From Oscillospiraceae bacterium (GTDB taxonomy: Bacteria > Bacillota > Clostridia > Oscillospirales > Oscillospiraceae), in assembly GCA_017436955.1 (NCBI GenBank), contig JAFSCD010000016.1, positions 62,001-126,000 of the forward strand: a DNA stretch of 64,000 bases, read 5' to 3'. The notes below the pieces were generated by a model. The model searched no databases, was not told where the DNA came from, and saw nothing but the letters and a program-made list of their open reading frames with translations. The translations under genes were made by a program, and so were the position numbers. Positions 3,825 to 48,358 of the stretch are shown piece by piece; within the stretch, counting starts at the first letter, position 1, and each line of letters starts with the position of its first letter.

Positions 3825-3851
3825 AAAAGCCCCCTCTCACGAGGGGGCTTT
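3825..3851 (-). terminator. Terminator of the fumarate-reduction operon (bidirectional)
   Basis: AAAGCCCCCTC / GAGGGGGCTTT, an 11-bp stem with a TCAC loop, has T-rich flanks on the minus strand. It lies 8 bases beyond the last stop of the long minus-strand operon. Confidence 0.85.
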
Positions 3852-3858
3852 CAAACAT

Positions 3859-5127
3859 TTACACGGGGATAAAGGTATTGATCAGCTGGGATGCCAGTAC
3901 CACCAGCACCAGCGCGATGGGATAGGTGGACGCGTAAGCCGCAGCCACGTCATCCGTGCCGGCAACGCCGATCAGCGTGCCCAGCGCAGGTGTGGAGGTC
4001 ATACCGCCGGTGATGGAGCCCAGGTTGTTCAGCAGGGGTAGCTTGCAGATATACCGCGCGAACAGGAAACCTACGATCATGGGGATCAGCGTCATAACCA
4101 TACCGGCAGCAAAGCCGTAAACTACGATCATAATGCCGTAGCTGGAGTTTGCGATCTGCTCCACCAGTTCCACGCCGCCTTCAACGCCTGCGCCCACCAG
4201 GAACAGCATCAGACCGAATTCCCGGAAGCTCTTCAGCGCGTGCTCATCCACCTTCAGGCTGATCTTGCCGATCCGACCGAAATGCGCCAGGATCAGTCCC
4301 ATCAGCAGCGGACCGCCGGTCATACCCAGGGAGAAGCTGGCCTTGCCGCCCAGAGGGATCTTGACAGAGCCCAGCAGCACGCCCAGCGCCACCACCAGAC
4401 CAAATGCGGCGAAGCCGAATTCATCCAGCTCAATGAGCTTGCGTGCCTTCTTTTCCGTGGCAGCCTCCTCGGCGGCAACGCCGATCAGGGTGCGCTCGTG
4501 GACGATATCCGCCTTCATGATCCGGGGCATGATCTGCACGAACAGCACCACGCCGATGACACCGAAGGGATAGGCGACTGCGTGACCCAGAGAAACCAGA
4601 CCCAGCTTGGAAGCATCCACCGCTTCCACAGCGCCCTGGGCTGCGGAAAATGCCGGGGTGGAGGTCAGCGCACCGGAGAGAATACCGGTGGCATAAGCAG
4701 AGCCGATGCCGGGGATCAGCGCAAAACCCACGGTGACGGCGGCACCGATCACAATGATCAGCGCGCCCATAGGCACGTAGGACTTGGCGTTGATCTTCAG
4801 ATTGCGGAAGAACTTGGGACCGGCGATGAGACCCACGGAGGAGACAAACAGCACCAGACCGATGTTGGAAAGGAATTTGAAGCTGGAGATCTTGGCATCG
4901 CTTGCATCCGCCATATAGAACTTGCCCAAAACCGGGATGTCCTTAAGACCCGGCAGGGTGCACAGATAGCCAAACAGCAGGGCAAACAGGAACACGCCTG
5001 CGGTACCCAGATTCAGCCCCTTCACCTTGATGGCGCCGATGGCGTAGCCAACAAAGCAGATCAGGAAAACGCTCAAAAACACGGCAGGCGTCTGACCGAG
5101 GCTGATGATATTTGAAATAAAGTCCAT
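3859..5127 (-). CDS. Aspartate:alanine exchanger (AAEx)-family permease, likely C4-dicarboxylate/succinate transporter
   Basis: The 422-residue product is very hydrophobic, with about ten membrane segments. It contains the duplicated YidE/AspT half-domain signatures, such as GILSGALTSTPAFSAAQ in the first half and GSITGGMTSTPALGTLIG in the second. Classical members (AspT, SucE) are about 540-560 residues and carry cytosolic TrkA_C/RCK domains between the halves. Here only a short charged linker (about residues 205-235) joins them, so the regulatory domains are missing. It is the last gene of the operon that makes malate, fumarate and succinate, 18 bases after frdA. SucE-type members export succinate, so succinate efflux or fumarate/succinate exchange is the likely job. 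That role is inferred from context. Confidence 0.8.
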   Translation of the reverse strand: MDFISNIISLGQTPAVFLSVFLICFVGYAIGAIKVKGLNLGTAGVFLFALLFGYLCTLPGLKDIPVLGKFYMADASDAKISSFKFLSNIGLVLFVSSVGLIAGPKFFRNLKINAKSYVPMGALIIVIGAAVTVGFALIPGIGSAYATGILSGALTSTPAFSAAQGAVEAVDASKLGLVSLGHAVAYPFGVIGVVLFVQIMPRIMKADIVHERTLIGVAAEEAATEKKARKLIELDEFGFAAFGLVVALGVLLGSVKIPLGGKASFSLGMTGGPLLMGLILAHFGRIGKISLKVDEHALKSFREFGLMLFLVGAGVEGGVELVEQIANSSYGIMIVVYGFAAGMVMTLIPMIVGFLFARYICKLPLLNNLGSITGGMTSTPALGTLIGVAGTDDVAAAYASTYPIALVLVVLASQLINTFIPV

Positions 5128-5145
5128 TACGAAATTCGCCTCCGA

Positions 5146-6747
5146 TTACTTGACCTTGCGGGTATAGTCGGGAAGCAACTGGGGAGACAGCGTGTCACCG
5201 GTGACGCCGGCATCCTTGCGCTGCTGCTCAAATGCGGCAACGTGTGCCAGGGTGGCGGTGCCGGGGGTGACGGACTTGGCCTTCTCGGAAGCGTACTTGC
5301 CGGCGTTACGACCGAATACGATGATGTCCAGCAGGCTGTTGCCCATCAGACGGTTGCGACCGTGGATGCCGCCGACCACCTCACCGGCTGCGTACAGATT
5401 TTCAATGTCGGTCTGGGTATCGTCAGAGATCTTCAGACCGCCGTTCTGGTAGTGCAGCGTGGGGTAGATCAGGATGGGCTCCTTGCGGATGTCGATGCCG
5501 TGCTTGCCGAACATACGCATCATAGCGGGGATCCGCTTCTCAATGGTGCCTTCGCCGTGCTTCAGCTCGATCATAGGCGTATCCAGCCAGACGGCGTAGC
5601 CTTCCGGCGTGGGAACGCCGTTGCCGCGGTCGGAGCATTCGCGGATGATGGAAGCAGCGGAGACGTCACGGGTCTCCAGAGGATTCATAAATACCTCGCC
5701 GTTGGCGTTGACCAGCATAGCGCCTACGGAGCGGACCTTTTCGGTAACCAGAGCGCCGTAGATCTGTGCTGGGAACGCAGCGCCGGTGGGATGGTACTGC
5801 AGCGTGTCGGGATACAGCAGACGTGCGCCGGCACGGTAAGCCAGCACCAGACCGTCAGCGGTAGCGCCGTAGTGGTTGGAGGTGGGGAAGCCCTGGTAGT
5901 GCAGTCTGCCCGCACCGCCGGTGGCAAGGATCACGGTCTTCGCCCGGGCGACCAGCAACTCGCCGGTCTCCATATTCTTCAGCACAGCGCCGCAGCAGCG
6001 ATCGGCCTCGTCCTTGATCAGCTCTATGGCGGAGGTAAAGTCCACCACGGGGATCTGGCGGTTCAGCACCTCATCCCGGAGGGTACGCATAATTTCCGCG
6101 CCGGAGTAGTCCTTGGCTGCGTGCATTCTCTTGCGGGAGGTGCCGCCGCCGTGGGTGGTGACCATGGTGCCGTCGGGGGTCTTGTCGAATTCCACACCCA
6201 GCTCGCTAAGCCAGGCGATGGCTTCGGGTGCTTCGGTGACCAGCTTATACAGCAGATCCTTCTGGGCGGCAAAGTGACCGCCGCCGAAAGCATCCAGGAA
6301 ATGCTGGGCAGGGCTGTCGCCGGGCTTGTCAGCGGCCTGGATGCCGCCCTCTGCCATCATGGTGTTGGCATCGCCCATACGCAGCTTGGTAACGATCATA
6401 ACCTTCGCGCCGTTGTTGTGGGCTTCGATGGCAGCAGAGGTACCTGCGCCGCCGGCGCCGATGATCAGCACGTCGGTCTCATAGTCGGGCTTGCTCAGGT
6501 CGATATCCACGCCCAGCAGCCGGGACTGACCCTGCAGCAGCTTTGCCAGCTCCACAGGCACCTTCTGTCCGGCGTTGGGACCCATTACCAGATTCTCAAA
6601 CTGATCCTCACGGTAGTCGGGGTGATAGGTTTTCAGCAGGACGGACTTTTCCTCGGCGGTCATCCGGCGGGGATCCAGCTTCATATTGGCCTCGCGGGCA
6701 GCTTCTACCTTCCTGATAGATTCTTGCATAAAAGCATCTGTATACAT
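5146..6747 (-). CDS. frdA: Fumarate reductase/succinate dehydrogenase-type flavoprotein subunit
   Basis: The 533-residue product has an FAD dinucleotide-binding fold (VLIIGAGGAGTSAAIEA, about 93-109), the GGIQAA..HFLDAFGGG region, HGGGTSRKRMHAAKDYSGAE near 200, the capping-domain substrate motif LQYHPTGA, and a C-terminal FAD part (NLYAAGEVVGGIHGRNRLMGNSLLD). These match the FrdA/SdhA/TfrA family. The N-terminal ~90 residues precede the FAD fold and are longer than in enteric FrdA. The start is supported by GGAGGCGG. No membrane-anchor genes (frdC/frdD or cytochrome b) are present, so the enzyme is probably soluble, as in thiol:fumarate reductase. It is coupled to frdB with a 12-base gap. It should reduce fumarate to succinate. 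Confidence 0.9.
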   Translation of the reverse strand: MYTDAFMQESIRKVEAAREANMKLDPRRMTAEEKSVLLKTYHPDYREDQFENLVMGPNAGQKVPVELAKLLQGQSRLLGVDIDLSKPDYETDVLIIGAGGAGTSAAIEAHNNGAKVMIVTKLRMGDANTMMAEGGIQAADKPGDSPAQHFLDAFGGGHFAAQKDLLYKLVTEAPEAIAWLSELGVEFDKTPDGTMVTTHGGGTSRKRMHAAKDYSGAEIMRTLRDEVLNRQIPVVDFTSAIELIKDEADRCCGAVLKNMETGELLVARAKTVILATGGAGRLHYQGFPTSNHYGATADGLVLAYRAGARLLYPDTLQYHPTGAAFPAQIYGALVTEKVRSVGAMLVNANGEVFMNPLETRDVSAASIIRECSDRGNGVPTPEGYAVWLDTPMIELKHGEGTIEKRIPAMMRMFGKHGIDIRKEPILIYPTLHYQNGGLKISDDTQTDIENLYAAGEVVGGIHGRNRLMGNSLLDIIVFGRNAGKYASEKAKSVTPGTATLAHVAAFEQQRKDAGVTGDTLSPQLLPDYTRKVK

Positions 6748-6759
6748 CTTGCCGCCTCC

Positions 6760-7434
6760 TTACTTTTCGATGTCCCGATGGTTGTACAGCTCCTGCATTT
6801 CCTCAATGGGCTTGCCCATCAGGTCCTCCAGCAGCAGCTCGTACTTGCCTTCGTTGATCTCCTTGATGCGCTCATCCAGATGATCGCAGTGGGGAGCGAT
6901 GTACTTGCCGTAGAGCCGGCGGGCCAGCATAGCTACCTGGGGATGGGAGATGCCGGCAGGGCAGCGGCTGGAACAGACGCCGCACATAACGCAGTCGAAG
7001 GATTCTTCGGCGCACTTTTCATACTCGCCGCGCTGTGCGTAGGCGATGTACTGCATAACGTTCAAGCCCTGGGTACAAGCCTGGGTGCAGGCGTTGCAGC
7101 CCACGCAGGCGTAAATTTCGGGATACAGCTGCATCATGATCTGCTCGGTGGGCTTGACCTTGTTGATGTCATAAACCTCCTTCACCAGGGGGAAGAAGGG
7201 CAGGGTCGCCACGTACATATTGTCCTCCACCTTGGTGGAGCAGGCAAGGCAGGTCTTCAGCTCCCGGTCACCGGCGATGCGGTAGATGGTAGCGCAGGCA
7301 CCGCAGAAGCCGTTGCGGCAGCCGCAGCCCCGTACCAGCTGATAGCCGGCGTATTCCATAGCCTCCATAATGGTCAGGCTGGCAGGAACGCTGTATTTCT
7401 TGCCGTAAAGATAAACATTAACCATTTTTTCCAT
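6760..7434 (-). CDS. frdB: Fumarate reductase iron-sulfur subunit
   Basis: The 224-residue product has an N-terminal [2Fe-2S] domain (CGCRNGFCGAC with a later LKTCLAC, about 36-80) and a C-terminal ferredoxin domain with CVGCNACTQACTQG and CVMCGVCSSRCPAG. This is the FrdB/SdhB/TfrB layout. The TfrB of methanogens carries extra HdrB-like CCG domains; this one stops before them, and a separate hdrB lies in the same operon. The start follows AAGGAG. It should carry electrons to the FAD of FrdA, most likely from the Flx-Hdr proteins encoded just upstream. Confidence 0.9.
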   Translation of the reverse strand: MEKMVNVYLYGKKYSVPASLTIMEAMEYAGYQLVRGCGCRNGFCGACATIYRIAGDRELKTCLACSTKVEDNMYVATLPFFPLVKEVYDINKVKPTEQIMMQLYPEIYACVGCNACTQACTQGLNVMQYIAYAQRGEYEKCAEESFDCVMCGVCSSRCPAGISHPQVAMLARRLYGKYIAPHCDHLDERIKEINEGKYELLLEDLMGKPIEEMQELYNHRDIEK

Positions 7435-7446
7435 TTTCGTTTCTCC

Positions 7447-8274
7447 TTAATACTCGTCGGGCAGTTCGTCCATCTGATCCAGACGGAATACAGGACCGTC
7501 CTTGCAGACATACTTGTCGCCGATGTTGCAGCGACCGCACTTGCCCAGAGCGCACTTCATCTTCAACTCAAAGGTGGTGTAGACCTGGCTCTTTTCAAAG
7601 CCCAGCTCCATCAGACCGGCCAGTGTGAACTTGATCATAATGGGAGGTCCGCACATCAGAACGGTCTTGGAGGTGTCAAAGTTCAGCTCCTTGACGTAAT
7701 TGGGAACGAAGCCCACGTGACCGTCCCATTCCGGCTGGGGATTGTCAATGGTCAGGTGAACATTGATGCCGTCCTCCTTGCACCACTCGTCGATGATCTC
7801 GGGGAAATCCACCAGATCTGCCATACTGCGGGAACCGTAGACGATGTCGATCTTGCCGTAACGGTCACGGTAGTGGCGGCAGTAGTTGATGACGGAGTGC
7901 AGCGGCGCCAGACCGATGCCGCCGGCGATGAACAGCAGATCCTTTCCGGCAAGCTCGGTATCCACGGGGAAACCGTTGCCGTAGGGACCGCGGATGGTGA
8001 TCTGCTGACCTACCTCCATCTGGTGCAGCCAGGTGGTAACGCAGCCGCACTTTTTAATGGAGAAGTCCAGATAATCCTTTTCCGTGGGAGAGGAGGTGAT
8101 GGAAAACAGCGCCTCGCCCACACCGGGGATGGACAGCATCGCGCACTGTCCGGGAATGTGCTGGAAGGGCTTCACACCGTCAATGCCGGTGACCCGGAAG
8201 GTCTTTACATCCGGCGTGTCGGTGCGGATCATGGTCACCACGCCCAGCATAGGAATCAACGGATCGTTTCTCAT
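7447..8274 (-). CDS. flxA: FlxA-like NAD(P)H-oxidising flavoprotein (ferredoxin reductase family)
   Basis: The 275-residue product is an FNR-like flavoprotein: an FAD-binding barrel (GQCAMLSIP..LFSITSSP), a nucleotide-binding fold (LLFIAGGIGLAPLHSVI, CGPPIMI) and a C-terminal [2Fe-2S] motif (CALGKCGRCNIGDKYVC). This is the plan of FlxA and of dihydroorotate dehydrogenase electron-transfer subunits. The start at 8274 shares one base with the flxB stop (TAATG) and has AAGGAGG upstream; a longer reading from 8331 lacks a ribosome site. In FlxABCD-HdrABC of Desulfovibrio this subunit oxidises NADH. Here it lies between flxB and frdB, at the head of the electron path by inference. Confidence 0.87.
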   Translation of the reverse strand: MRNDPLIPMLGVVTMIRTDTPDVKTFRVTGIDGVKPFQHIPGQCAMLSIPGVGEALFSITSSPTEKDYLDFSIKKCGCVTTWLHQMEVGQQITIRGPYGNGFPVDTELAGKDLLFIAGGIGLAPLHSVINYCRHYRDRYGKIDIVYGSRSMADLVDFPEIIDEWCKEDGINVHLTIDNPQPEWDGHVGFVPNYVKELNFDTSKTVLMCGPPIMIKFTLAGLMELGFEKSQVYTTFELKMKCALGKCGRCNIGDKYVCKDGPVFRLDQMDELPDEY

Positions 8275-9290
8275 TACATATCCTCCTTCAGCGCTTTGGC
8301 GACCTTGACGATGTTCATATGGATGGGGCACTTCTGCAGGCAGCGACCGCAGCCGACGCAGCCGAAGATGCCGTCATTATTGTTGGGGAAATACACCAGC
8401 TTGTGCATAAACCGCTGGCGGAAGCGCTCCTTCTGGGTGGGCCGGTTGGTGCCGTGTGCCATCATAGTGAAATCGGAGTACATACAGCTGTCCCAGCAGC
8501 GGAAGCGGCGCACCTCACGGCCGTTGTCGAAATCCTGCACGTCATAGCACTGGCAGGTGGGGCACACGAAGGTGCAGGTGCCGCAGCCCAGGCAGCTTTC
8601 GGAAAGGGCTGCCCACTTGGGGCTGTTGAATACGTCCATCAGCTTCTGATCCTTGAAATCAGAAAAATCCAGACCGTTCAGCGGCAGCTTCCTGAGGATC
8701 TCACGCACGGCCTCCTGCTGTGCGGTAACGGCGCTGCCGTCGCAATCCGTCAGGTCCAGGGTGGCGGTGAGGGCTTCGCCCTTTTCCGTGTTGGCACGCC
8801 AGTAGAGGTTTTCGCCATCCATCCAGCAGGTGATATCACCGGCAGGGTTGGTTGCGTCAATGCCGAAGGTGCCGCAGAAGCAGGTCTCGGCAGGACGGGA
8901 GCAGGCCAAAGTGATCACTACGCCGTTTTCCCGGCGGGTCTGGTAGAAGGTATCCACCGGGTCGGAAAGGAATACCCGATCCAGAATGTCGAAGCTGGCA
9001 GCGTCGCAGGCACGCACGCCAAATACCACAAAGGGCTCAGTGGCGTCCCGGTTTTCGATGATCTCCAGCTTGGTGCCTTCCATCTTGAAGTTCACAAGCT
9101 GCTCGACCTGGGGGAAGAAAAGATCCTTGGCGCTGCGGACGGTATTCAGCTTGTCGGACAGCTGTACGCCCTCTGCCCAGAGTGTGAATTTGGCAGCGCC
9201 CGCGCCGTCATCGGCAGGGATGTAGAGCGCTTTCCGGGCAGCGATGGCTGCGAACAGCGTATTTAACTGGGAAATCGCAATCTTTTTCAT
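8274..9290 (-). CDS. flxB: FlxB-like 4Fe-4S dicluster subunit
   Basis: The 338-residue product has an N-terminal half like the anaerobic sulfite reductase A / hydrogenase 4Fe-4S dicluster family, then two ferredoxin motifs, CLGCGTCTFVCPTCQCYD and CVGCGRCLQKCPIHMN. ATG 9290 has GGGGAGGG upstream and comes one base after the flxC stop. Such subunits pass electrons between flavin and HdrA-bound clusters. I assign the letter from gene order, which mirrors flxABCD-hdr of Desulfovibrio, so the B/C labels could be exchanged. Confidence 0.8.
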   Translation of the reverse strand: MKKIAISQLNTLFAAIAARKALYIPADDGAGAAKFTLWAEGVQLSDKLNTVRSAKDLFFPQVEQLVNFKMEGTKLEIIENRDATEPFVVFGVRACDAASFDILDRVFLSDPVDTFYQTRRENGVVITLACSRPAETCFCGTFGIDATNPAGDITCWMDGENLYWRANTEKGEALTATLDLTDCDGSAVTAQQEAVREILRKLPLNGLDFSDFKDQKLMDVFNSPKWAALSESCLGCGTCTFVCPTCQCYDVQDFDNGREVRRFRCWDSCMYSDFTMMAHGTNRPTQKERFRQRFMHKLVYFPNNNDGIFGCVGCGRCLQKCPIHMNIVKVAKALKEDM

Positions 9291-9291
9291 C

Positions 9292-10254
9292 TTATTGCCC
9301 TCCCCGTTCATGCACGATGGACGGCTCGCAGTCGTCCACGGTGAAGTTTGTCAGCGGCGGCTTGGTGTCCATATCGGCGCCGGCCTGATAAGGCCCATAC
9401 AGCTCGTTGATATCCTTGATCAGCTTCCGGTTCAGCAGGTGCAGGGGTATGTTCTGGGGACATACCCGGCTGCATTCGCCGCAGTCGGTGCAGCGACCGG
9501 TAACGTGGAACGCCCGGATGATGTGGAACATATTTTCCTCAAAGGAGTCGGCAGCGGCCTTGTTGCGCACGCCGGAGTTGGCGTTGTCGAATACGCACTT
9601 TTCGCAGCTGCAGGCAGGACATACGTTGCGGCAGGCGTTGCAGCGGATGCAGCGGGACAGCTCGCCGCGCCAGAAATCAAAACGCTCCTCGGGGGTCATA
9701 GCCTCCAGCTTTGCTACCTCGCCGAAGCGGTCAGCTTCCGTTTCCTCGCCCTGCTCGCCGATCAGCTCATCAAAGACCACGATCTTCTTGCTCTTGCAGG
9801 TAGCGCAGCGGTCGGCGATGGCATCGGCCTTCTTTACGGTCTTTTTGCCGTACAGCGTGTCAACGGTCAGGCTCTCGCCGTCCTCCTGCACGCCCAGGAT
9901 GCCCTCACAGCCCAGCTTGGCTACGTCGCACATACCGTCGCACTGCACGCCGACCACGTAAACGTTGTCACGGAGAATGCGATGCTCCTTCAGCAGCTGC
10001 TGGAAGGAGTAGCTGTCGCAGGGCTTGATGAAGGCGGCGACCTTGCCGCCCTTGCGGCTTTCCGCGATCAGGTATTTGCTCAAATTGGCACCGGCGAACA
10101 CATTGAAAACGAAATCCTTTTCGATCTGCTCCTTGCTGGTGAATACGGCAGGCGTCAGATCGTAGAAGAATTCGCCGGCTTTCCAGCCCAGGATCCGGTC
10201 GGCAGTGCCGTTCTGGAGCAGCTCAATGGCTTTTTGCTTTAATCTTTCCTGCAT
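9292..10254 (-). CDS. flxC: FlxC-like iron-sulfur subunit
   Basis: The 320-residue product carries several Cys groups: an FrhB/FdhB-like middle region with CDGMCDVAKLGCEG and CATCKSK, then ferredoxin motifs CIRCNACRNVCPACSCEKC and CTDCGECSRVCPQNIP. The start is ATG 10254 after GGAGGATCTGAG. The flxD end overlaps the first 16 bases, so the two are translationally coupled. Its role is electron transfer within the Flx-Hdr complex, known for the family and inferred here. Confidence 0.8.
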   Translation of the reverse strand: MQERLKQKAIELLQNGTADRILGWKAGEFFYDLTPAVFTSKEQIEKDFVFNVFAGANLSKYLIAESRKGGKVAAFIKPCDSYSFQQLLKEHRILRDNVYVVGVQCDGMCDVAKLGCEGILGVQEDGESLTVDTLYGKKTVKKADAIADRCATCKSKKIVVFDELIGEQGEETEADRFGEVAKLEAMTPEERFDFWRGELSRCIRCNACRNVCPACSCEKCVFDNANSGVRNKAAADSFEENMFHIIRAFHVTGRCTDCGECSRVCPQNIPLHLLNRKLIKDINELYGPYQAGADMDTKPPLTNFTVDDCEPSIVHERGGQ

Positions 10255-10679
10255 CTCAGATCCTCCAATCTCCGGTTGGGACCCAGCTTATGGATCGTGG
10301 CGGAAAATTCATTCATAGTGGCGGCAAACTTTGCGCCTTCGGCGGCGCTGACCCATTCCACACGGGTACGCTCACGCTCGATGCCCAGGAAATCCAGCAT
10401 GGAGAACAGCAGGGTCATACGGCGACGGGCGTAGTAGTTGCCGGTGGTGTAGTGGCAGTCACCGGGGTGGCAGCCGCACAGGATCACGCCATCAGCACCC
10501 CGCTGGAATGCCCGCAGGATGAACATAGGATTCAACCGGCAGGAGCAGGGGATGCGGATGATCTTTACGTTGGCAGGGTATTGCAGACGGTTGGTGCCGG
10601 ACAGGTCAGCGCCTGCGTAGGAGCACCAGTTGCAGCAGAATGCAACGATTGTAGGCTTGAATTCTTCATTTACCGGCAT
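10239..10679 (-). CDS. flxD: FlxD / MvhD-family hydrogenase iron-sulfur subunit
   Basis: The 146-residue product shows the MvhD signatures: FCCNWCSYAGADLSG, IPCSCRLNPMFILRAFQRGADGV and CGCHPGDCHYTTGN, with conserved Cys that hold a [2Fe-2S] cluster. MvhD links the electron-donating enzyme to HdrA. ATG 10679 has a GGAGGTGG site and overlaps the last 10 bases of hdrA. The length is close to the usual ~140 residues. A longer reading to 10874 would cover the hdrA 3' end and is rejected. Confidence 0.9.
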   Translation of the reverse strand: MPVNEEFKPTIVAFCCNWCSYAGADLSGTNRLQYPANVKIIRIPCSCRLNPMFILRAFQRGADGVILCGCHPGDCHYTTGNYYARRRMTLLFSMLDFLGIERERTRVEWVSAAEGAKFAATMNEFSATIHKLGPNRRLEDLRCRKD

Positions 10680-12658
10680 ATTGCATCCACCTCCGCCATA
10701 ATTTGTTTGTTGGAGAAGCCCTTCAGGTCCATAGCACCGGAGGGGCAGGCAACGGTACAAGCGCCGCAGCCCTGGCAGACCGCGGGATTCACCTGCGCCA
10801 CCCGACGGATCAGGGTGGTGCGGTTGGGTCCGCGGAATTCCTTGTCGATATAGGTAATTGCGCCGTAGGGACAAACCTTTTCACAGCTGGAACAGCCGTT
10901 GCACATCATTTCGTCGGGCGTTGCGGTGCAGGGGTTGCAGATCAGGTGATCCTTGTTCAGCAGACCGATGACTTTTGCCGCCGCGGCAGAAGCCTGGGCA
11001 ACGGTCTCGGGGATGTCCTTGGGACCCTGGCAGGCACCGGACAGGAAGATGCCGGCGGTGGGGCTTTCCACGGGACGCAGCTTGGGGTGTGCCTCGGTGA
11101 AGAAGTCGTTGGTGTCCATAGAAGCGGTCAGCATAGTAGCCAGCGGTCTTGCGCTCTTATCCGGCTCGATGGCGGCAGCCAGAACCACCATATCGGCGTC
11201 GATATGCAGCTGCTGGTTGCCAATCAGATCGGAAGCCTGAACCTTCAGCTTGCCGTTTTCGGGAACTACCTTGCCCACCATACCCTTGACATAGTGGACG
11301 CCGTACTCTTCCACGGCTCTGCGGTAGAATTCGTCAAAATTCTTACCCGGGGTACGCACGTCGATGTAGAATACGTACACGTCGGTGTCAGGATACTTTT
11401 CCCGGCACAGCATTGCGTGCTTGGCTGTGTACATACAGCAGATCTTGGAGCAGTAGGGCTTGCCTTTGCTGTCATCGCAGCGGGAGCCGACACACTGCAC
11501 GAATACGATGGTGTGGGGATGCTGACCGTCGGAAGGACGCAGCAGCGTACCGCCGGTAGGACCGGCAGCATTCATCAGCCGCTCAAACTCCAGAGAGGTG
11601 ACTACGTCAGGGCTCTGGGAGTAGGCAAACTCATCATACTTGTCCAGCTTGATGGGATTGAAGCCGGTGGCGACCACGATGGCGCCGTATTCCTGCTCAA
11701 TGAAGGCATCCTTCTGCTGATAGTCGATGGCGCCGGCGGTGCAGACCTTGGAGCAGACACCGCACTTGCCGCTTTTCAGCATGGTGCAGTAGTCGGCGTC
11801 GATAGTGGCGACCTTCGGCACAGCCTGTGCGAAGGGGATGTAAATGGCGCGGCGGTTGTCCAGGCCCAGATTGAACAGATTGGGTACTTTCTTCTGGGGG
11901 CATTTTTCGGTGCAAAGACCGCAGCCGGTACACTTGGTCTCGTCCACAAAACGGGCCTTCTTCTTAATGGTGACCTTAAAGTTACCAACAAAGCCCCTGA
12001 CGGAGGAAACCTCGGAGTAGGAATAGATATGGATCCGCTCGTTCTGGGCGGCGTCCACCATCTTGGGGGTCAGGATACAAGCCGCACAGTCCAATGTGGG
12101 GAAGGTCTTGTCGATCTGGGTCATCTTGCCGCCGATGGTGGGCTCTTTTTCCACGATGTCCACATCAAAGCCGGCGTCGGCGATGTCCAGCGCGGTCTGG
12201 ATGCCGGCGATACCGCCGCCGATGACCAGCGCACGCTTCTTAACGGGAGAGGTGCCGGCGGTCAGCGGTGCGTTCAGATGCACCTTGGCGATGGCGGCAC
12301 GACCCAGAATGATCGCCTTTTCGGTGGCGGTGTCCTTGTCCTTGTGGATCCAGGAGCACTGCTCGCGGATATTGGCGATCTCCACCATATAGGGGTTCAG
12401 ACCTGCCTTCTCGCAGGTCTTGCGGAAGGTGTTTTCGTGCATTCTGGGGGAGCAGGAGCAGATCACAACACCGGTAAGATTGTACTTGCGGATGCTTTCC
12501 TGGATCATTTCCTGACCGGCCTGGGAGCACATATACTGATAATTGGTGGAAAAGACCACGCCGGGCTCTTTTGCCAGAACTTCGGCAACCTTTTCCACGT
12601 CTACGGTGGCGGCGATGTTACTGCCGCACCAGCAGACGAATACGCCTACACGTTGCAT
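10670..12658 (-). CDS. hdrA: HdrA, FAD-containing electron-bifurcating heterodisulfide reductase subunit
   Basis: The 662-residue product matches HdrA: an N-terminal RVGVFVCWCGSNIA motif and thioredoxin-reductase-like FAD fold (ALVIGGGIAGIQTALDIADAGFDV), the HdrA Cys region LDCAACILTPKMVDA, a ferredoxin insert (CTGCGLCTEKCPQ), and two C-terminal 4Fe-4S motifs (CNGCSSCEKVCPYGA, CQGCGACTVACPSGA). HdrA FAD is where flavin-based electron bifurcation occurs in characterised Hdr complexes. GAGGTGAAGG precedes ATG 12658. It lies between hdrC and flxD in the operon. It is expected to split electrons between ferredoxin and the HdrBC branch. Confidence 0.93.
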   Translation of the reverse strand: MQRVGVFVCWCGSNIAATVDVEKVAEVLAKEPGVVFSTNYQYMCSQAGQEMIQESIRKYNLTGVVICSCSPRMHENTFRKTCEKAGLNPYMVEIANIREQCSWIHKDKDTATEKAIILGRAAIAKVHLNAPLTAGTSPVKKRALVIGGGIAGIQTALDIADAGFDVDIVEKEPTIGGKMTQIDKTFPTLDCAACILTPKMVDAAQNERIHIYSYSEVSSVRGFVGNFKVTIKKKARFVDETKCTGCGLCTEKCPQKKVPNLFNLGLDNRRAIYIPFAQAVPKVATIDADYCTMLKSGKCGVCSKVCTAGAIDYQQKDAFIEQEYGAIVVATGFNPIKLDKYDEFAYSQSPDVVTSLEFERLMNAAGPTGGTLLRPSDGQHPHTIVFVQCVGSRCDDSKGKPYCSKICCMYTAKHAMLCREKYPDTDVYVFYIDVRTPGKNFDEFYRRAVEEYGVHYVKGMVGKVVPENGKLKVQASDLIGNQQLHIDADMVVLAAAIEPDKSARPLATMLTASMDTNDFFTEAHPKLRPVESPTAGIFLSGACQGPKDIPETVAQASAAAAKVIGLLNKDHLICNPCTATPDEMMCNGCSSCEKVCPYGAITYIDKEFRGPNRTTLIRRVAQVNPAVCQGCGACTVACPSGAMDLKGFSNKQIMAEVDAICR

Positions 12659-12669
12659 GATCCTTCACC

Positions 12670-13041
12670 TCACTTTCTGTATTTGCGGAAGGCGGCGGTG
12701 ATGGCCTGCTGCGGCAGCTCATCATCCAGCAGCGCCGGAATTTCATCGGGAGTCAGGTGCGCGCCACCCTGCTGACGGATGACCGCCAGACGGACAGCCT
12801 CGATGACCTTGGCAGGCTCCACATTTCTGGGGCAGCGCTCCACGCAGGCGAAGCAGCTTAAGCAGAAGTCGATGCCTTCGGAATTCATCAGCTCGTCAAT
12901 GCGACCGTTTTCCACCATATCCACAAACTGATGGGGATGGAACTGCATCCGGTCAAATGCCGGGCAGGAAGCGGTGCATTTGCCGCACTTCATACACTTT
13001 CTGGGATTGACGCCGGAAATGCGCTTGATGGTGTCGATCAT
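12670..13041 (-). CDS. hdrC: HdrC, heterodisulfide reductase iron-sulfur subunit
   Basis: The 123-residue product carries two 4Fe-4S motifs, CMKCGKCTASCPAF and CLSCFACVERCPRN, in the order seen in HdrC. The ATG overlaps the hdrB stop (ATGA), with GGAGGCGGC upstream inside hdrB. It passes electrons between HdrA and HdrB. It is somewhat shorter than methanogen HdrC (~180 residues), as is common in bacteria. Confidence 0.9.
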   Translation of the reverse strand: MIDTIKRISGVNPRKCMKCGKCTASCPAFDRMQFHPHQFVDMVENGRIDELMNSEGIDFCLSCFACVERCPRNVEPAKVIEAVRLAVIRQQGGAHLTPDEIPALLDDELPQQAITAAFRKYRK

Positions 13042-13829
13042 TTTGCCGCCTCCTTTACGCCCAGAGCTTCCGCGAGAAGCTCGGTGAAATATGCTACCGG
13101 GAGACCCTCGGTGGCATTTTCCTTCAGGTTATACAGACACAGCGGGCAAGCGGTGATCAATTCTTCTGCACCGCAGGCTTTGGCGTTGTCCATAATGGCA
13201 TCCACCTGTTTGGTGGCAAAGCCCTTGTCCTTAATGGTACAGTAGCCGCCGCAGCATTCGTTGCGCCGTGCGTAGATCACCGGCTCGGCACCGATGGCCC
13301 GGATGAAATCCTCCAGAATGGTGGGATTTTCGGGATCGTCAAAGCCCATTTCCTGGGCAGGACGCAGCAGCATACAGCCGTAGTAAGCGCCGATCTTGCG
13401 ACCGGTCAGGGGATTGACCACCTTTTCCTTCAGCTTGTCGAAGCCGATCTTGTCACGCAAAACCTCCAGGTAATGCAGCACATCGGTCTCGCCGGCATAG
13501 GGGGTCTCCAGCTTTAAGTAACGGGCGACCTTGTCGCGGATCGCTTCGTCGGTGCGCAGATCGTTGTTGACCCGCTTAATCACGTGGTGGCAGGCGGAGC
13601 ATAAGGTTACCAGCGCCTGACCCTTTTCGCCCGCGGCCATCAATGCCCGGACGGAGGAAAGCTTGGTGGCGATCTCATCTCTTGCCATAGGGTACACAGC
13701 ACCGCAGCACTGCCAGTCCGGCAGCTCCTCAAGGGTGAAGCCCAGAGCCTCTGCGGAGGCTCTGCCCCAGATATCCAAGTCTTTTCCTTTGGTTTTCAGG
13801 GTACAACCCGGAAAATAAGAATATGTCAT
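13038..13829 (-). CDS. hdrB: HdrB, CCG-domain heterodisulfide reductase catalytic-type subunit
   Basis: The 263-residue product has two CCG domains. The first has YFPGC, DWQCCGA and LCSACHH; the second has YYGCMLL, NECCGGYC and TACPLCLYN. These Cys ligate the noncubane 4Fe-4S clusters of HdrB. In methanogens HdrB reduces CoM-S-S-CoB, but bacteria lack that substrate. With frdAB in the same operon and no other acceptor visible, its partner here may be FrdB. It overlaps hdrC by 4 bases. Confidence 0.92.
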   Translation of the reverse strand: MTYSYFPGCTLKTKGKDLDIWGRASAEALGFTLEELPDWQCCGAVYPMARDEIATKLSSVRALMAAGEKGQALVTLCSACHHVIKRVNNDLRTDEAIRDKVARYLKLETPYAGETDVLHYLEVLRDKIGFDKLKEKVVNPLTGRKIGAYYGCMLLRPAQEMGFDDPENPTILEDFIRAIGAEPVIYARRNECCGGYCTIKDKGFATKQVDAIMDNAKACGAEELITACPLCLYNLKENATEGLPVAYFTELLAEALGVKEAAK

Positions 13830-13845
13830 AGCAATTCCTCTTTTA

Positions 13846-15222
<1,377 letters not shown>

Positions 15223-15236
15223 ACCGGGCTCCTCCT

Positions 15237-16184
15237 TTAGATCTCGATGGCGGCAATGGTTTCCTTCAGCTTGTTGGCGCTGCGCTGCAGCTTTGCCAGC
15301 TCCTCGTCGGTCAGATCGTTCTGGATTTTGCCGCGGATGCCGGTGTCGTCCACGATGCACAGGGTGCTCAGGCACACGTCGGAGATGCCGTACTCGCCCT
15401 TCATCATGGAAGAAACGGTCAGGGCGGTGCCGGAGCCGTTGAAGATGCAGCGGACGATGTGGCACACGGACATGGCAACGGCGTAGTTGGTAACGCCCTT
15501 GGCCTTGATGACCACGGCGCCGCTGGTGCGGACGTGCTCCTCGATACCCTCATAGTCACCGCAGAAGGTGATATGCTGATTCTTGGGGGCGTTCTTCTTG
15601 TAGTTGGCGATGCGGTTGTTGGAGATGGTTGCCAGGGACCAGGGCACGAAGGAGCTGTCGCCGTGCTCACCGTAAACGTGGGCGTGGACGTTCTTGGGGC
15701 TGATGTTGAACTGTCTTGCCAGCTCAGCCTGCAGACGGGCGGTGTCCAGAATGGTGCCGGAGCCGATGATGCGCTTTCTGGGAATGCCGGAGATCTTATG
15801 GAACACGTAGGTCAGCACGTCAACGGGGTTGGAAACGATGATATAGATCGCATCGGGTGCGTGCTTAACGATATTGGGGGTGATGTCCTTCAGGATGTTG
15901 ACATTGGTCTGTGCCAGCTCCAGACGGGTCTGACCCGGCTTTCTGGGCAGACCGGAGGTGATAACGACGATATCGGAGCCCTTGGCGTCCTCATAGTCAC
16001 CGCCGTAGACATTGGCAGGGGAAGCAAAGCTCAGACCCTGATAGATGTCCATCGCTTCACCGAAGGCTTTTTCCTTGTTGATGTCCACCAGAACGATCTC
16101 GGTAGCGACGTTGGTAACTGCCAGGTCGTTGGCGATGGATGCGCCGACAGAGCCGGCACCGATGATAGTGATTTTCTTGCCCAT
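15237..16184 (-). CDS. mdh: Malate dehydrogenase on an L-lactate dehydrogenase-like scaffold
   Basis: The 315-residue product is an NAD-dependent LDH/MDH family enzyme: Rossmann motif [16 protein letters not shown], the active-site segment [11 protein letters not shown] with the catalytic His, and [10 protein letters not shown]. The substrate loop reads [17 protein letters not shown] with Arg at residue 81, where true LDHs have Gln. That change is known to switch specificity from pyruvate to oxaloacetate. The rest of the sequence ([12 protein letters not shown]) is LDH-like. It opens the operon behind a strong promoter, with AAGGAGAG before ATG 16184. Context and Arg81 both favour malate dehydrogenase. 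Confidence 0.87.
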
Positions 16185-16309
16185 AATTATTACTCTCCTT
16201 GTAAAAATGTGTGGGGTTTTTCCTTATAAAATGCCGCATTTCCCAGCGGACGCGGGCGGGTTTCTGCGGCAAATGAAATGCCTGCAGCGACCCATTGTTT
16301 ACCATCGTA

Positions 16310-16338
16310 ATTGTACACGAAATTGCCGGAAAAGTCAA
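16310..16338 (-). promoter_or_regulatory. Promoter of the mdh-frd operon
   Basis: On the minus strand, TTGACT (16338-16333) and TACAAT (16315-16310) are spaced 17 bp apart. The predicted 5' leader is about 118 bases and contains an inverted repeat (TGCCGCA / TGCGGCA at about 16234-16280), so a structured leader is possible. No other good promoter was noticed within the 12.4 kb downstream, consistent with one long transcript. Confidence 0.85.
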
Positions 16339-40342: not shown

Positions 40343-43300
40343 ATGAGAAAAATTAGCTTACTGCAAAGAGTGATGGCGCTGTTCCTTTGTTTGGCATTGG
40401 TTGCCAGCCTTGCGCCCATGACCGCCCGCGCGGCAACTCCGGTTGCCCAGGCGATCGCAGAAAATACCGTTACCGATCCCAACACAGCAGATGACTGGGA
40501 GCATATGATGGGTACCGACACCGACGGCAACCGTTATGCCGGTCGTGTGTGGGCAGACCGATCTGTCTACCAGAATGGAGATACCGTTGTCCTGAACAGC
40601 AGGGGAGAGACCAACTCTTCCTTTACGGTTTCGCTGGAAGAGGATGAGGTGTTCCAGGTGATGTTCTCCGTTTTGGGCTCTACCATGACCACCACGGAGA
40701 CCGTCAGCTCCACTGGTCCTATGGATGTGGTGTTGGTTCTGGATATTTCTCCTTCTATGACGGAGAAAGTGTCCGATGGCGCTTCCCGTCTGCAGACGAC
40801 AATTGCTGCGGCCAACACACTGATCGACAATCTGCTGAAGCTGGATGATATGCGGCTGGGCATCGTCACTTACAGCCCCAGCAGCGAAGTGCTCCTGCCT
40901 CTGGCAGCCTATAATGACGGCATCGTTCTGTCTGCTGATGACACAAACTGTGTGATTACCGTCAAGAATAGCAGTGGCCAACAGTTGAAGGTGGGTCGCG
41001 GCAACGGCAGCGGCGGCACCAATCTGCAATCCGGTATTGACACCGGTATGAAAATGCTGGCCGAAGCTTCCAGCCCGAAAGACCGTATGCCGGTCCTGAT
41101 CCCCCTGACCGACGGTCAGGCAAACTACGCTGTAACAAGCAATTTCTACAATATCTCCGCAGGTTCAAGAGAATACGACGAAGATGGCAGCTCCGGTGTT
41201 GTTCTGAGCACCCTGCTGAATGCGGCATACAACAAGGTTTTGGTGGAGAAGCATTATGGCAAGGCGCCCAAAGTTTACGGCGTTACTGTGGACCTGAAAA
41301 ACAATGCTTTTGCCAATGCGCTGATGGATCCTGCCAATTCTTTCAACAGCAGCAACAGCAGCAGTGCCGTCAAAGAGGCTTATGAAGAGTTTGAAAACTG
41401 GGCTGAGGGCGACACAGTAACCATCCGGAAGGGAAGCTGGCTTACAGGATATACCACATGGACCTTTAATCACAATTTCCCCGCCAGCCCTGCTGTGACC
41501 ACTGCGGAAGTGGCAGAGAACATCAACTATGTGGATAAGCACTACGATGTTTCCAGCGACGAGTTGAATCTTGTATTTACGCAGATTTACAAGGAGCTGT
41601 CCTCCGCTGCATTCAACCCCATTACCAGCAGCACCTCCAGTGTTGGCGGTACCGGTGTGGATGATACGCCGCTGATCTATGCTGACTATATCGGCCAGTA
41701 TATGGAGATCAAGGAGATCGAGGCAGTTACCCTGTTCGGCGCGTCCTACGGCGTTACCAAGCACGCTGACGGCAGCTATACCGTTACGCAAGCCACCGGC
41801 ACCAACCCCACCACCAACGAGAGTTGGAACACTGCCGATGATATCCGTATTTATGTAACGGAGCAGGCCGACGGCACCCAGAAGCTGGAGATCCATATCA
41901 ACCAGGAGATCCTGCCCATCATTCTGGAAAAGGTGGATGCCGAAACCGTTGGCAACGTTACCACCTCCACCATCATCGAGCTGACGCAGGATCCTCTGCG
42001 GGTGTTCTACACCATCGGTTTGGATGAATCCGTTTTGCTGCCCAATGGTAAGATAGATGTTTCCAAGCTGCAGGGCTATGAGTACATTGACGATGCCAAC
42101 GGCACGGTGACGTTCTACGCCAGCCAGTTCGGCGAGGAAAATCCTGCCGACGGCGCAGGTGTGGTATACAAGGGTGACAGCCACGTTGGCTTCCAGCCCT
42201 CTAATGAGAACAGATACTACTACCATCAGGAGAACCAGGGCATTTTCATCGGCATCACCGACAGAAACGGTCAGAGCGTTTCCATCCCGGAAAACAATGA
42301 ATACGGCATCGTTTGGGATGAAGATGCGTACACGCTGGACTGGATGAGCTACGATGAGTACCTGACGATGCAGGACGGTATGACGGTCTACACCTATGTG
42401 TCCTACTACCATCCGACCCCCAGCACCACCGACGCGGCAAATGCCGCAGAGAAGGTCACCTATCTGGTATATACCGACTGGATGTATCTGAAGGAATCGG
42501 TAGCCTTCTATGACAACAATACTGGAACTTACCTCAATGACGGCAAGGTTACCTCCCAGGCCGAGGTGGAGGCATACCTGCAGGCAAATCCCAATGCGGA
42601 TATCTATGCCGTTCTGGGTGTCGGCTCCCGCCGCACCAGCCGGCTGCACAATATGATGCACGAGAAGCTCTCCAACGATACCGGCACCGCTGTGGAAAGC
42701 TACACCCCCGAGTATCTGGAGAACAAGCAGGATCATCACGGCAATGATGTGGTCATCTGGCTGGGCAACAACGGCAAGCTGACCGTGGAAGTGGAGACCG
42801 GCATCGCGCTGACCAAGCAGGTCACCGAGTCCATCGGCTCCGCGGATGATACCTACGCGCTGACCGTTACCGTGCCTGCCGGCGTTGCCGCCGAGCCTGT
42901 CGTGCTGGATGCACACGGCAACGCTGTGGCGTTTACCTACACCGGTAATGTGCTGACGGTCAACGTTAAGGCAAATGAGACCGTCTATATCTCCGGCATC
43001 CCCGGCGGTACGGTCTGCACCATTGATGAGATCATCAGCGGCGATTACTACGTTGACAGCAAGACCGACTCCGTCACCGTGCCCCTGGTAAGCCAGGCAA
43101 TCAGCAGCGGTGTGCAGTTTGTGCCGGCTACGGTTACCAACGCGCCTTACAAGTATGGCGACCTGACGGTGATCAAGGAGATCGACCACGATTTTGATTC
43201 CCTGCCCACCGCAATGGCAAACAAGGTGTTCACCTTTAAGGTGGAGCTCGATCCTTACACCGCCGGCGATCAGTACACCGTGGATAAGCTCAACGCACCC

Positions 43301-46954: not shown

Positions 46955-48358
46955 TTATTTTAGGCTGGTCACGGCGGCGGTGATGGAGGAATGTTCGGCT
47001 TCCTGACCATACTTGTCCACCTCCAGCTTGTTCTTTTCGCCGTGGGAGAGGCAGCCGGCGCCGTTGGTGCAGCCGCCGATGCAGGCCATTCCTTCAATGA
47101 AATTGCCGTCCAGAATACCCTTATTCAGCTTCAACAGCGCGATCTTGCAGGCTTCGATGCCGTCGCAGACAACGGGCTTCAGGTCAAATTCGATATTCTG
47201 CTCCTTCAGCGCCTGGGCGACCGCATCCGACAGACCGCCGGTACGGGCGAAAATGCGACCAAAATAGGATGCGTTGTTTAGGGGCGTTTCATCCATCTGG
47301 GAGATGAAGAAATCCCGGCTGTCAAACAGCGCCTGCAGCTCCTCAAAGGTCAGCACCGCATCCACATAGGGCTTCACTTCGGGCGTTTGCGCCTCCGCCT
47401 TCTTGGCGGTGCAGGGACCGATGAAAACCACTTTGGCGTCGGGATCCTTCTGCTTGATGTACTGCGCCAGCTTTGCCATAGGGGAGGGGCTGTGAGAGAT
47501 GTATTTCTCAAGCTGGGGGAATGCGGACTTGATATACTGCACGAATGCCGGGCAGCAGGAGCTGGTGAGCATACCCTTTTGCGCCAGCTCTCCGGCTTCC
47601 TCCAGCGCCACCATATCCGCGCCCAGAGCCGCCTCCACCACGTCCTTGAAGCCCAGCTTGTGAAGCCCCGTCACCACCTGACCCAGCCTGGCATAGCTGA
47701 ACTGGCTGGCGATGGAGGGTGCAACGATGGCATAGGCGCTGCCGCTTTTCAGTGCGGCGATGGCGTCCAGAATGTAGGATTTGTCGGTGATGGCACCGAA
47801 GGGACACTGATACACGCAGGCACCGCATTGGGTACACTTGCTTCCCTCGATGGTGGCAGACCAATCCTCGTTCATAGAAATGGCCTTGACCTTGCAGGCG
47901 CTCTGGCAGGGGCGCTTGCGGCTGACAATGGCGGTGTAGGGGCAGACCTTGATACATTGCCCACATTCCTTGCATTTGGATTTGTCGATGTGGGCAACGT
48001 GGTCACTGTCCAGATAGATGGCGCCGAAGCGGCACACGTCCTCGCAGCGGTGTGCCAGACAGCCACGGCAGGCGTTGGTGACCTCATAGCCGCCAACGGG
48101 ACATTCGTCGCAGGCAATCTCGATGACCTCGATAACGTTGGGATTCTCCTTGTCGCCGCCCATGGCGATCTTGACCCGCTCGCCTAAAATGGCGCGCTCC
48201 TTGTACACGCAGCAGCGCATAGTGGCTTCCTTGCCGGGTACAAGGGTCTGGGGAATGTCCATCAGATTCTGCAGCAGCTTGTCCTCCCAGGCCAGCCGGG
48301 CGACCTCGCGCAGGACCTTGTATTTCAAGTGCTGAATTTTGGTGTCGAATTTTCTCAT
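46955..48358 (-). CDS. [FeFe]-hydrogenase-like ferredoxin-rich protein (group B type)
   Basis: The 467-residue product has N-terminal iron-sulfur motifs (CRGCLAHRCEDVCRF, CKECGQCIKVCPYTA, CQSACKV, CTQCGACVYQCPFGA, about 90-190) and the H-cluster motifs in order: LTSSCCPAFVQY (L1), FIGPCTAKKAEA (L2) and GMACIGGCTNGAGC (L3). All four H-cluster Cys seem present. The L1 and L2 forms differ from TSCCPxW and MPCxxKxxE of the classic enzymes and resemble group B. It may produce or sense H2 using ferredoxin. No HydE/F/G maturases are in the window. AAGGTG precedes the ATG. Confidence 0.82.
   Translation of the reverse strand: MRKFDTKIQHLKYKVLREVARLAWEDKLLQNLMDIPQTLVPGKEATMRCCVYKERAILGERVKIAMGGDKENPNVIEVIEIACDECPVGGYEVTNACRGCLAHRCEDVCRFGAIYLDSDHVAHIDKSKCKECGQCIKVCPYTAIVSRKRPCQSACKVKAISMNEDWSATIEGSKCTQCGACVYQCPFGAITDKSYILDAIAALKSGSAYAIVAPSIASQFSYARLGQVVTGLHKLGFKDVVEAALGADMVALEEAGELAQKGMLTSSCCPAFVQYIKSAFPQLEKYISHSPSPMAKLAQYIKQKDPDAKVVFIGPCTAKKAEAQTPEVKPYVDAVLTFEELQALFDSRDFFISQMDETPLNNASYFGRIFARTGGLSDAVAQALKEQNIEFDLKPVVCDGIEACKIALLKLNKGILDGNFIEGMACIGGCTNGAGCLSHGEKNKLEVDKYGQEAEHSSITAAVTSLK

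What the first reader, a model, noticed from the sequence alone, without database searches (positions are those of the whole stretch)
3859..16338. One operon joins malate dehydrogenase, fumarase, a complete Flx-Hdr bifurcation module, a soluble fumarate reductase and a dicarboxylate transporter
Seen: twelve same-strand genes, several overlapping, behind one strong promoter and one terminator, encoding every enzyme from oxaloacetate to succinate plus HdrA/B/C, MvhD-type FlxD and FlxA/B/C. Known: Flx-Hdr proteins use NADH and HdrA bifurcates electrons; methanogen TfrB is a FrdB-like domain fused to HdrB-like CCG domains. Inference: here FrdB and HdrB are the split version of TfrB, so NADH oxidation could reduce both ferredoxin and fumarate, conserving energy without a membrane fumarate reductase. 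No other acceptor for HdrB is apparent in the operon.
Basis: partly seen in the sequence, partly recalled or inferred. Interest (0 to 1): 0.9.

Follow-up and report, generated by a model that had tools for sequence, protein, structure and literature searches.

The report
Succinate operon with electron-bifurcation genes
A gut-type bacterium keeps the genes from oxaloacetate to succinate in one operon with a soluble electron-splitting module, an arrangement already proposed for another succinate producer and here found in many gut Clostridia, while its chemistry still awaits a bench test.

Summary
Twelve tightly packed minus-strand genes (window 16184-3859) run mdh-fumC-hdrB-hdrC-hdrA-flxD-flxC-flxB-flxA-frdB-frdA-transporter, ending in a strong terminator; the 'strong promoter' is a consensus match no commoner than chance. 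FrdA keeps six catalytic residues of E. coli FrdA but has Asn where the covalent-FAD His sits. FrdB is not a canonical FrdB: [2Fe-2S] plus two four-Cys [4Fe-4S] motifs. HdrB keeps both CCG motifs.

The idea is not new. A 'succinate operon' with fumarase, Flx-Hdr, fumarate reductase and putative transporter, and ferredoxin-coupled fumarate reduction, is in print for Pseudoclostridium thermosuccinogenes (PMC7282089, citing a 2019 preprint).

Added here: hdrBCA-flxDCBA-frdBA has identical order in 55 of 55 loci long enough to test, mostly gut Clostridia MAGs, one labelled Ruminococcus flavefaciens. Twelve of 12 genomes checked have a single FlpD gene, beside frdA, and lack DsrC, menD (over cut-off) and Sdh_cyt. 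Elsewhere in the phylum this FrdAB sits beside HdrBC alone, other Hdr modules, or (19 of 39 places) none.

Best reading: NADH bifurcated directly to fumarate and ferredoxin; plausible, untested.

The parts
16310..16338 (-). promoter-like site TTGACT-17-TACAAT
   Evidence: count of such sites in the region equals shuffled expectation
15237..16184 (-). mdh, LDH-like malate dehydrogenase (Arg at specificity position)
13846..15222 (-). fumC, class II fumarate hydratase
13038..13829 (-). hdrB, two complete CCG non-cubane cluster motifs
12670..13041 (-). hdrC, 4Fe-4S dicluster protein
10670..12658 (-). hdrA (662 aa), FAD + multiple Fe-S, bifurcating-type subunit
   Evidence: HdrA2 model 796 bits over positions 1-640 of 777, cut-off 1100; the rest of that model matches the separate flxD
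10239..10679 (-). flxD (MvhD/FlpD family)
9292..10254 (-). flxC-like Fe-S protein (named by position)
8274..9311 (-). flxB (Fer4_22; sulfhydrogenase-beta/AsrA-like)
7447..8274 (-). flxA (FAD/NAD-binding, DHODB-type Fe-S)
6760..7434 (-). frdB: [2Fe-2S] + two four-Cys [4Fe-4S] motifs, twelve Cys invariant in 43 aligned rows
5146..6747 (-). frdA: soluble fumarate reductase flavoprotein, six catalytic residues kept, no covalent-FAD His
3859..5127 (-). AspT/Asp-Al_Ex-family transporter, probable dicarboxylate/succinate carrier
   Evidence: substrate inferred
3825..3852 (-). intrinsic terminator hairpin

Best explanation
The operon encodes a soluble, quinone-independent succinate pathway. Mdh and FumC turn oxaloacetate into fumarate. 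FlxABCD takes hydride from NADH and passes pairs to the FAD of HdrA, which bifurcates: one electron goes to ferredoxin, the other through HdrC and HdrB to FrdB and on to the flavin of FrdA, which reduces fumarate to succinate. Net (inferred): 2 NADH + fumarate + ferredoxin(ox) -> 2 NAD+ + succinate + ferredoxin(red, 2 e-). Reduced ferredoxin then feeds an Rnf-type complex and/or [FeFe] hydrogenase, so succinate formation conserves energy without a membrane fumarate reductase. The last gene probably exports succinate or exchanges it for another dicarboxylate. Shown: gene content, order, catalytic and cluster residues, conserved synteny, single FlpD gene, absence of the alternative partners that were searched. 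Inferred: direct HdrBC-FrdAB contact, direction, bifurcation and stoichiometry, use of Rnf, transporter substrate.
For: Identical hdrB-hdrC-hdrA-flxD-flxC-flxB-flxA-frdB-frdA order and strand in 55 of 55 of the 80 kept loci that have at least 7.2 kb upstream; fumC in 50 of 53, mdh in 40 of 52. Exactly one FlpD per genome, on the frdA contig 3.5-3.6 kb from frdA, in 12 of 12 genomes. No DsrC (0 of 12), no menD over cut-off (0 of 12), no Sdh_cyt (0 of 12; positive in 7 of 14 control genomes); [FeFe] hydrogenase in 11 of 12; RnfC_N in 11 of 12, a domain that also rings in 9 of 14 controls and so is only suggestive of Rnf. Six E. coli FrdA catalytic residues map to identical residues in the window FrdA; five are identical in 40 of 40 family rows, the Thr in 39. 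Best fold matches of the FrdA model are E. coli FrdA. In other lineages the same FrdAB family adjoins HdrBC alone (4 of 39 places), full Flx-HdrABC (5: four with frdBA first, one in the window's order but hdrC before hdrB) and an HdrA-variant module (11, two cut by contig ends), on separate branches of the FrdA tree. FrdAB neighbours elsewhere include fumarase, malic enzyme and pyruvate carboxylase. Standard energetics -48.8 kJ/mol, against -40.5 for Bcd-Etf (potentials recalled). Transcripts of the corresponding operon rise about 4-fold under CO2 limitation in P. thermosuccinogenes, not significantly for every subunit.
Against: No biochemical demonstration found. FrdAB of this family stands without any Hdr gene in the fetched stretch in 19 of 39 places (L202 is cut at the contig end and L187, L190, L205 have under about 3 kb upstream), and four of those genomes (G165, G169, G393, G474) have no FlpD match at E 1e-10, so another donor can serve it. 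In the tubeworm symbiont, tfrAB transcripts did not follow the rest of the Hdr-Flx cluster. The FrdB model gives no reliable fold match (best TM 0.28) and no complex could be modelled, so contact with HdrB is untested. The own genome is a draft (82% complete), so its absences are soft; the other 11 are 86-99% complete. G060 shows no RnfC_N and G035 no [FeFe] hydrogenase; ATP-PEPCK is in only 7 of 12.
Confidence: 0.65

Rival explanations
1. Flx-Hdr and FrdAB are two separate enzymes of one pathway: Flx-Hdr reduces ferredoxin and a diffusible disulfide or protein thiol, and FrdAB takes electrons from ferredoxin or another carrier.
For: FrdAB of the same family occurs without Hdr in 19 of 39 places and without any FlpD match in four genomes; Flx-Hdr in Desulfovibrio is thought to use a thiol partner (recalled); the tubeworm model offers a DsrC-like carrier as one route, and tfrAB expression departs from the cluster there.
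Against: No DsrC in 12 of 12 genomes; fixed contiguity of nine genes in 55 of 55 loci; frdAB-hdrBC units without hdrA nearby in 4 places point to HdrBC as part of the reductase.
Confidence: 0.17
2. The whole set is a soluble NADH:fumarate reductase without bifurcation: Flx-Hdr is only a wire and all electrons go to fumarate.
For: NADH to fumarate alone is exergonic; HdrA-dependent bifurcation has, to my recollection, not been shown for this subfamily.
Against: HdrA is closest to the HdrA2 model (796 bits) with FAD and several Fe-S motifs; a plain wire should not need HdrA, and the genomes carry [FeFe] hydrogenase and RnfC_N proteins that could use reduced ferredoxin.
Confidence: 0.12
3. The complex runs backwards in vivo, oxidising succinate with reduced ferredoxin input to make NADH (confurcation).
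For: Related FrdAB loci sit beside a TPP-enzyme subunit (2-oxoacid oxidoreductase type by recalled motif) and, by start sequence, succinyl-CoA synthetase (recalled), i.e. contexts of uncertain direction.
Against: FrdA lacks the His for covalent FAD (Asn128 in the window), which favours fumarate reduction (recalled); the window operon has mdh + fumC, and PEPCK is in the genome, which suit the reductive direction; P. thermosuccinogenes produces succinate.
Confidence: 0.05

Closest known systems
'Succinate operon' of Pseudoclostridium thermosuccinogenes, CDQ83_RS03315-03365 (PMC7282089; preprint of Koendjbiharie and van Kranenburg 2019, title seen only in its reference list)
   Same: fumarase, seven Flx-Hdr locus tags, two fumarate reductase locus tags and a putative succinate transporter, in that locus-tag order; the same coupling of fumarate reduction to ferredoxin reduction is proposed
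   Different: The window operon also begins with mdh (none named in the published operon); P. thermosuccinogenes is a thermophile, the window's nearest named relatives are gut Oscillospiraceae MAGs; its sequence could not be fetched, so residue-level homology is untested
rTCA cluster of tubeworm symbionts and Thioflavicoccus (flxABCD-hdrABC interspersed with tfrAB and korABCD; PMC6315080, PMC11636981)
   Same: Flx-Hdr next to a thiol:fumarate reductase-type enzyme, direct electron hand-over proposed
   Different: Gammaproteobacterial, enzyme named TfrAB, 2-oxoglutarate:ferredoxin oxidoreductase in the cluster, carbon fixation rather than fermentation
FlxABCD-HdrABC of Desulfovibrio vulgaris (Ramos 2015, reference title seen)
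   Same: Same seven-subunit set
   Different: Involved in ethanol metabolism (title), with a presumed thiol partner and no frdAB attached (recalled)
Methanogen thiol:fumarate reductase TfrAB
   Same: Soluble FrdA-like subunit; Fer2, Fer4 and CCG domains in the partner (recalled; consistent with HMM matches)
   Different: Here the CCG part (HdrB) and Fe-S parts are separate proteins; FrdA scores 349.3 bits against a TfrA cut-off of 718
Soluble NADH-dependent bifurcating systems such as Bcd-EtfAB
   Same: NADH drives reduction of an unsaturated acid derivative and ferredoxin together
   Different: Unrelated proteins; Hdr-based rather than ETF-based (recalled)

Membership tests
Flx-Hdr-linked fumarate reductase ('succinate operon' type) | fumarase + seven Flx-Hdr genes + two fumarate reductase genes + transporter-like gene in one operon | tested here: met
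   window searches compared with the figure legend of PMC7282089 read
Flx-Hdr-linked fumarate reductase ('succinate operon' type) | sequence homology to the P. thermosuccinogenes genes | not tested
   that genome did not appear among the 80 kept loci and could not be named elsewhere
Flx-Hdr-linked fumarate reductase ('succinate operon' type) | fumarate reduction coupled to ferredoxin reduction | not testable with these tools
   needs enzymology; an assumption in the published case too
FlxABCD-HdrABC | HdrB with two CCG cluster motifs | tested here: met
   ten Cys conserved in 74 of 74 HdrB rows
FlxABCD-HdrABC | HdrA, HdrC, MvhD-type FlxD, NAD/FAD-binding FlxA, Fer4_22 FlxB | tested here: met
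   FlxC named by position only
Soluble fumarate reductase (FrdA superfamily) | catalytic residues of E. coli FrdA (His, Thr, Glu, Arg, His, Arg) | tested here: met
Soluble fumarate reductase (FrdA superfamily) | no membrane anchor or quinone route | tested here: met
   no anchor gene in the operon; Sdh_cyt 0 of 12, menD over cut-off 0 of 12 genomes; FrdC/FrdD-type anchors and the futalosine route not searched
Canonical FrdB/SdhB | dhsB-family score and three-Cys [3Fe-4S] site | tested here: not met
   31.2 bits against cut-off 88; third motif has four invariant Cys
Thiol:fumarate reductase TfrAB | TfrA and TfrB family cut-offs, fused TfrB | tested here: not met
   349.3 of 718 bits, 37 of 385 bits; FrdB and HdrB are separate ORFs

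The most novel reading that the evidence does not exclude
FrdAB plus HdrBC is a modular bacterial 'split thiol:fumarate reductase' that evolution has plugged repeatedly into different Hdr electron modules; in its Flx-HdrABC form it is a true NADH-bifurcating fumarate reductase and the general succinate-forming, energy-conserving enzyme of quinone-free gut Clostridia, Ruminococcus flavefaciens included.
Probability: 0.5. Interest if true: 0.72.

Novelty: new member of a known kind. Interest (0 to 1): 0.45.

Why it matters
Succinate is a product of many gut and rumen Clostridia that are thought to lack the menaquinone-linked fumarate reductase of E. coli or Bacteroides (recalled; in the 12 genomes checked here no menD over cut-off and no Sdh_cyt). 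If the complex bifurcates, every succinate formed also yields reduced ferredoxin for energy conservation or hydrogen, changing ATP and H2 balances in rumen and colon models. The enzyme also gives a soluble system for asking whether HdrB can hand electrons straight to another enzyme rather than to a disulfide. The breadth shown here offers many candidate hosts for purification, among them Ruminococcus flavefaciens (one MAG so labelled, L104).

Tried and rejected
Considered and rejected. (1) FrdA as L-aspartate oxidase: NadB models score lower than TfrA and sdhA_frdA (278.7 against 349.3 and 289.1 bits), and the context is fumarase/mdh. (2) mdh as lactate dehydrogenase: NCBIfam prefers LDH, but Arg stands at the recalled specificity position in the window and 38 of 40 homologues. 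(3) DsrC-type thiol carrier: absent in 12 of 12. (4) Quinone-linked enzyme: no Sdh_cyt and no menD over cut-off in 12 of 12; four genomes gave sub-cut-off menD hits (56-63 bits), read as other TPP enzymes. The futalosine menaquinone route and FrdC/FrdD-type anchors were not searched. (5) Promoter strength: no better than shuffles.

Led nowhere: the fold search of the FrdB model gave only low-TM matches; the patchiness in the genus (19 of 61 members, own included, hold a close frdA) was not explained; the 2019 preprint is not held; one P. thermosuccinogenes paper gave no hits for the terms; HdrA and HdrB were not searched genome-wide, so a second Hdr without FlpD is not excluded.

Papers: passages of PMC7282089, PMC5861303, PMC6315080, PMC6776011, PMC11636981 and PMC9044749 were read by term search; PMC6543838 had no hits; all others were seen in search listings only. 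Literature searches.


Full report
What is there. Twelve genes on the minus strand, 16184 down to 3859, are spaced by -20 to +18 bases and end in a strong hairpin terminator at 3852-3825 (-23.3 kcal/mol, z -7.3). The promoter-like site at 16338-16310 is well placed, but such sites are as frequent as in shuffled sequence (7 against 6.5 +/- 2.4). Order: mdh, fumC, hdrB, hdrC, hdrA, flxD, flxC-like, flxB, flxA, frdB, frdA, AspT-family transporter.

Identity checks. The mdh product passes NCBIfam's L-LDH cut-offs and just misses an MDH one, but it carries Arg at the position that (recalled) sets oxaloacetate against pyruvate; 38 of 40 homologues at the same place in related loci do too, 2 giving no motif match. 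FrdA matches the FrdA/SdhA/TfrA superfamily. Its AlphaFold2 model (pLDDT 84, pTM 0.89) is closest to E. coli FrdA in the PDB (TM 0.70). Aligned with E. coli FrdA, six catalytic residues are identical in the window protein; over the 40 family rows (window plus 39) five are identical in 40 and the Thr in 39. The His that binds FAD covalently in E. coli is Asn128, as expected for a soluble fumarate reductase (recalled). FrdA ends without the C-terminal domain of E. coli FrdA and has about 88 extra residues at the N-terminus. FrdB is not a family FrdB (31.2 bits, cut-off 88): it has one [2Fe-2S] and two four-Cys [4Fe-4S] motifs, all twelve Cys invariant in 43 aligned rows, so the usual three-Cys [3Fe-4S] site is replaced. 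HdrB keeps both CCG motifs, ten Cys in 74 of 74 rows.

Spread and synteny. By record title they are mostly gut MAGs of Oscillospiraceae and other Clostridia; one is labelled Ruminococcus flavefaciens (L104). Of 55 loci with at least 7.2 kb upstream, 55 have hdrB-hdrC-hdrA-flxD-flxC-flxB-flxA-frdB-frdA in this order and strand. fumC is there in 50 of 53, mdh in 40 of 52, the transporter in 39 of 64 loci long enough. The operon is patchy among near relatives: a close frdA (at least 70% identity) is in 19 of 61 genus members (own included) and 7 of 38 further order members.

Other contexts. In 398 genomes drawn evenly from the phylum, 39 (own included) hold FrdA of this family at E 1e-100. I fetched all 39 non-own places, from 38 genomes. 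Nineteen have no Hdr gene in the stretch (L202 is cut at the contig end; L187, L190 and L205 have little upstream sequence). Five have full Flx-HdrABC: four with frdBA ahead of hdr-flx, one (L184) in the window's order except that hdrC precedes hdrB. Eleven have an HdrA-variant module (two cut by contig ends). Four have hdrB and hdrC only. Of the Hdr-less genomes G165, G169, G393 and G474 have no FlpD match at all; the genomes with hdrBC only (G142, G350, G397, G459) hold several FlpD genes elsewhere. Neighbours tested by Pfam include pyruvate carboxylase (L171), malic enzyme and class I fumarase (L188) and a TPP-enzyme subunit (L176), so the fumarate reductase reading does not rest on the window alone. 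On a quick FrdA tree of 96 rows the window's operon type lies within one starred clade of 62 rows that also holds four Hdr-less rows, and the other Hdr associations lie elsewhere; the five context labels need 6 changes against 35.7 in shuffles (midpoint root, several long branches, some forks open). Hdr modules have thus joined or left this family more than once.

Genome-level partners. In twelve genomes with frdA-frdB-flxA together (own at 82% completeness plus 11 relatives at 86-99%), FlpD occurs exactly once, 3.5-3.6 kb from frdA (one search compared). DsrC is in 0 of 12, menD over cut-off in 0 of 12 with four weak sub-cut-off hits, Sdh_cyt in 0 of 12, [FeFe] hydrogenase in 11 of 12, RnfC_N in 11 of 12, ATP-PEPCK in 7 of 12, PYC_OADA in 11 of 12. 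RnfC_N also rings in 9 of 14 control genomes, so it suggests but does not prove Rnf. FlxD-type Hdr therefore has no second FlpD locus to serve in these genomes and no DsrC partner, and reduced ferredoxin has at least a hydrogenase outlet in 11.

Mechanism. The best reading is NADH -> FlxABCD -> HdrA, split between ferredoxin and HdrC/HdrB -> FrdB -> FrdA -> fumarate. With recalled standard potentials the 2 NADH + fumarate + ferredoxin reaction yields -48.8 kJ/mol, against -40.5 for Bcd-Etf. Contact between HdrB and FrdB, bifurcation and direction are inferred. The strongest results against exclusive coupling are the 19 Hdr-less places and the four FlpD-less genomes; the strongest for coupling are the fixed nine-gene block, the sole FlpD locus, and the frdAB-hdrBC units.

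Prior art. PMC7282089 (passages read) describes in P. [quoted passage not shown] PMC6315080 and PMC11636981 (passages) propose direct shuttling from Flx-Hdr to thiol:fumarate reductase in tubeworm symbionts; there tfrAB expression did not follow the rest of the cluster. My searches listed no paper on the operon's spread through gut Clostridia, its presence in R. flavefaciens, or the frdAB-hdrBC units; the library is open-access only and most listed papers were not opened.

Verdict. Real, well conserved, correctly read in outline; a new member of a known but, as far as I could read, biochemically untested kind. Interest 0.45.

Noticed in passing
window 46958-48358 (-): An [FeFe] hydrogenase (Fe_hyd_lg_C, 467 aa) lies in the same window; a second is elsewhere in the genome. 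Possible outlet for reduced ferredoxin.
   Followed up: partly
window 40343-46111 (+): A 1922-aa protein with three FctA/Spy0128-like isopeptide-domain stretches and a DUF7601 domain, perhaps a surface adhesin or pilin-like protein.
   Followed up: no
window 58669-61146 (+): An 825-aa protein with many TPR_10/TPR_12 repeats.
   Followed up: no
L175, L182, L189, L208: frdA, frdB, hdrB and hdrC together with no hdrA or flx genes in the stretch: a possible stand-alone split thiol:fumarate reductase; the genomes hold FlpD genes elsewhere.
   Followed up: partly
L176, L183, L192-L199, L203: frdAB beside an Hdr module without FlxA/FlxB; FlxD was seen in 10 of these 11, and in the three whose lengths were printed (L176, L183, L192) one HdrA-like ORF is very long (1071-1495 aa); L198 and L199 are cut by contig ends.
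   Followed up: no
L144, L147, L151, L154 and others: Many FlpD genes of the phylum hold a single in-frame TGA, as expected for selenocysteine forms; the window's FlxD has none.
   Followed up: no
L174, L186: frdB and frdA near small proteins with NapC/NrfH-like CxxCH-type stretches (recalled reading of the start sequences), hinting at a cytochrome donor in some Hdr-less lineages.
   Followed up: no
L181 (G189): A second frdA of the family in the same genome with no frdB found beside it.
   Followed up: no
L033, L083, L086: The operon on contigs labelled Bacteroidaceae, Treponema and Spirochaetaceae; mislabelled or mis-binned MAGs, or transfer.
   Followed up: no
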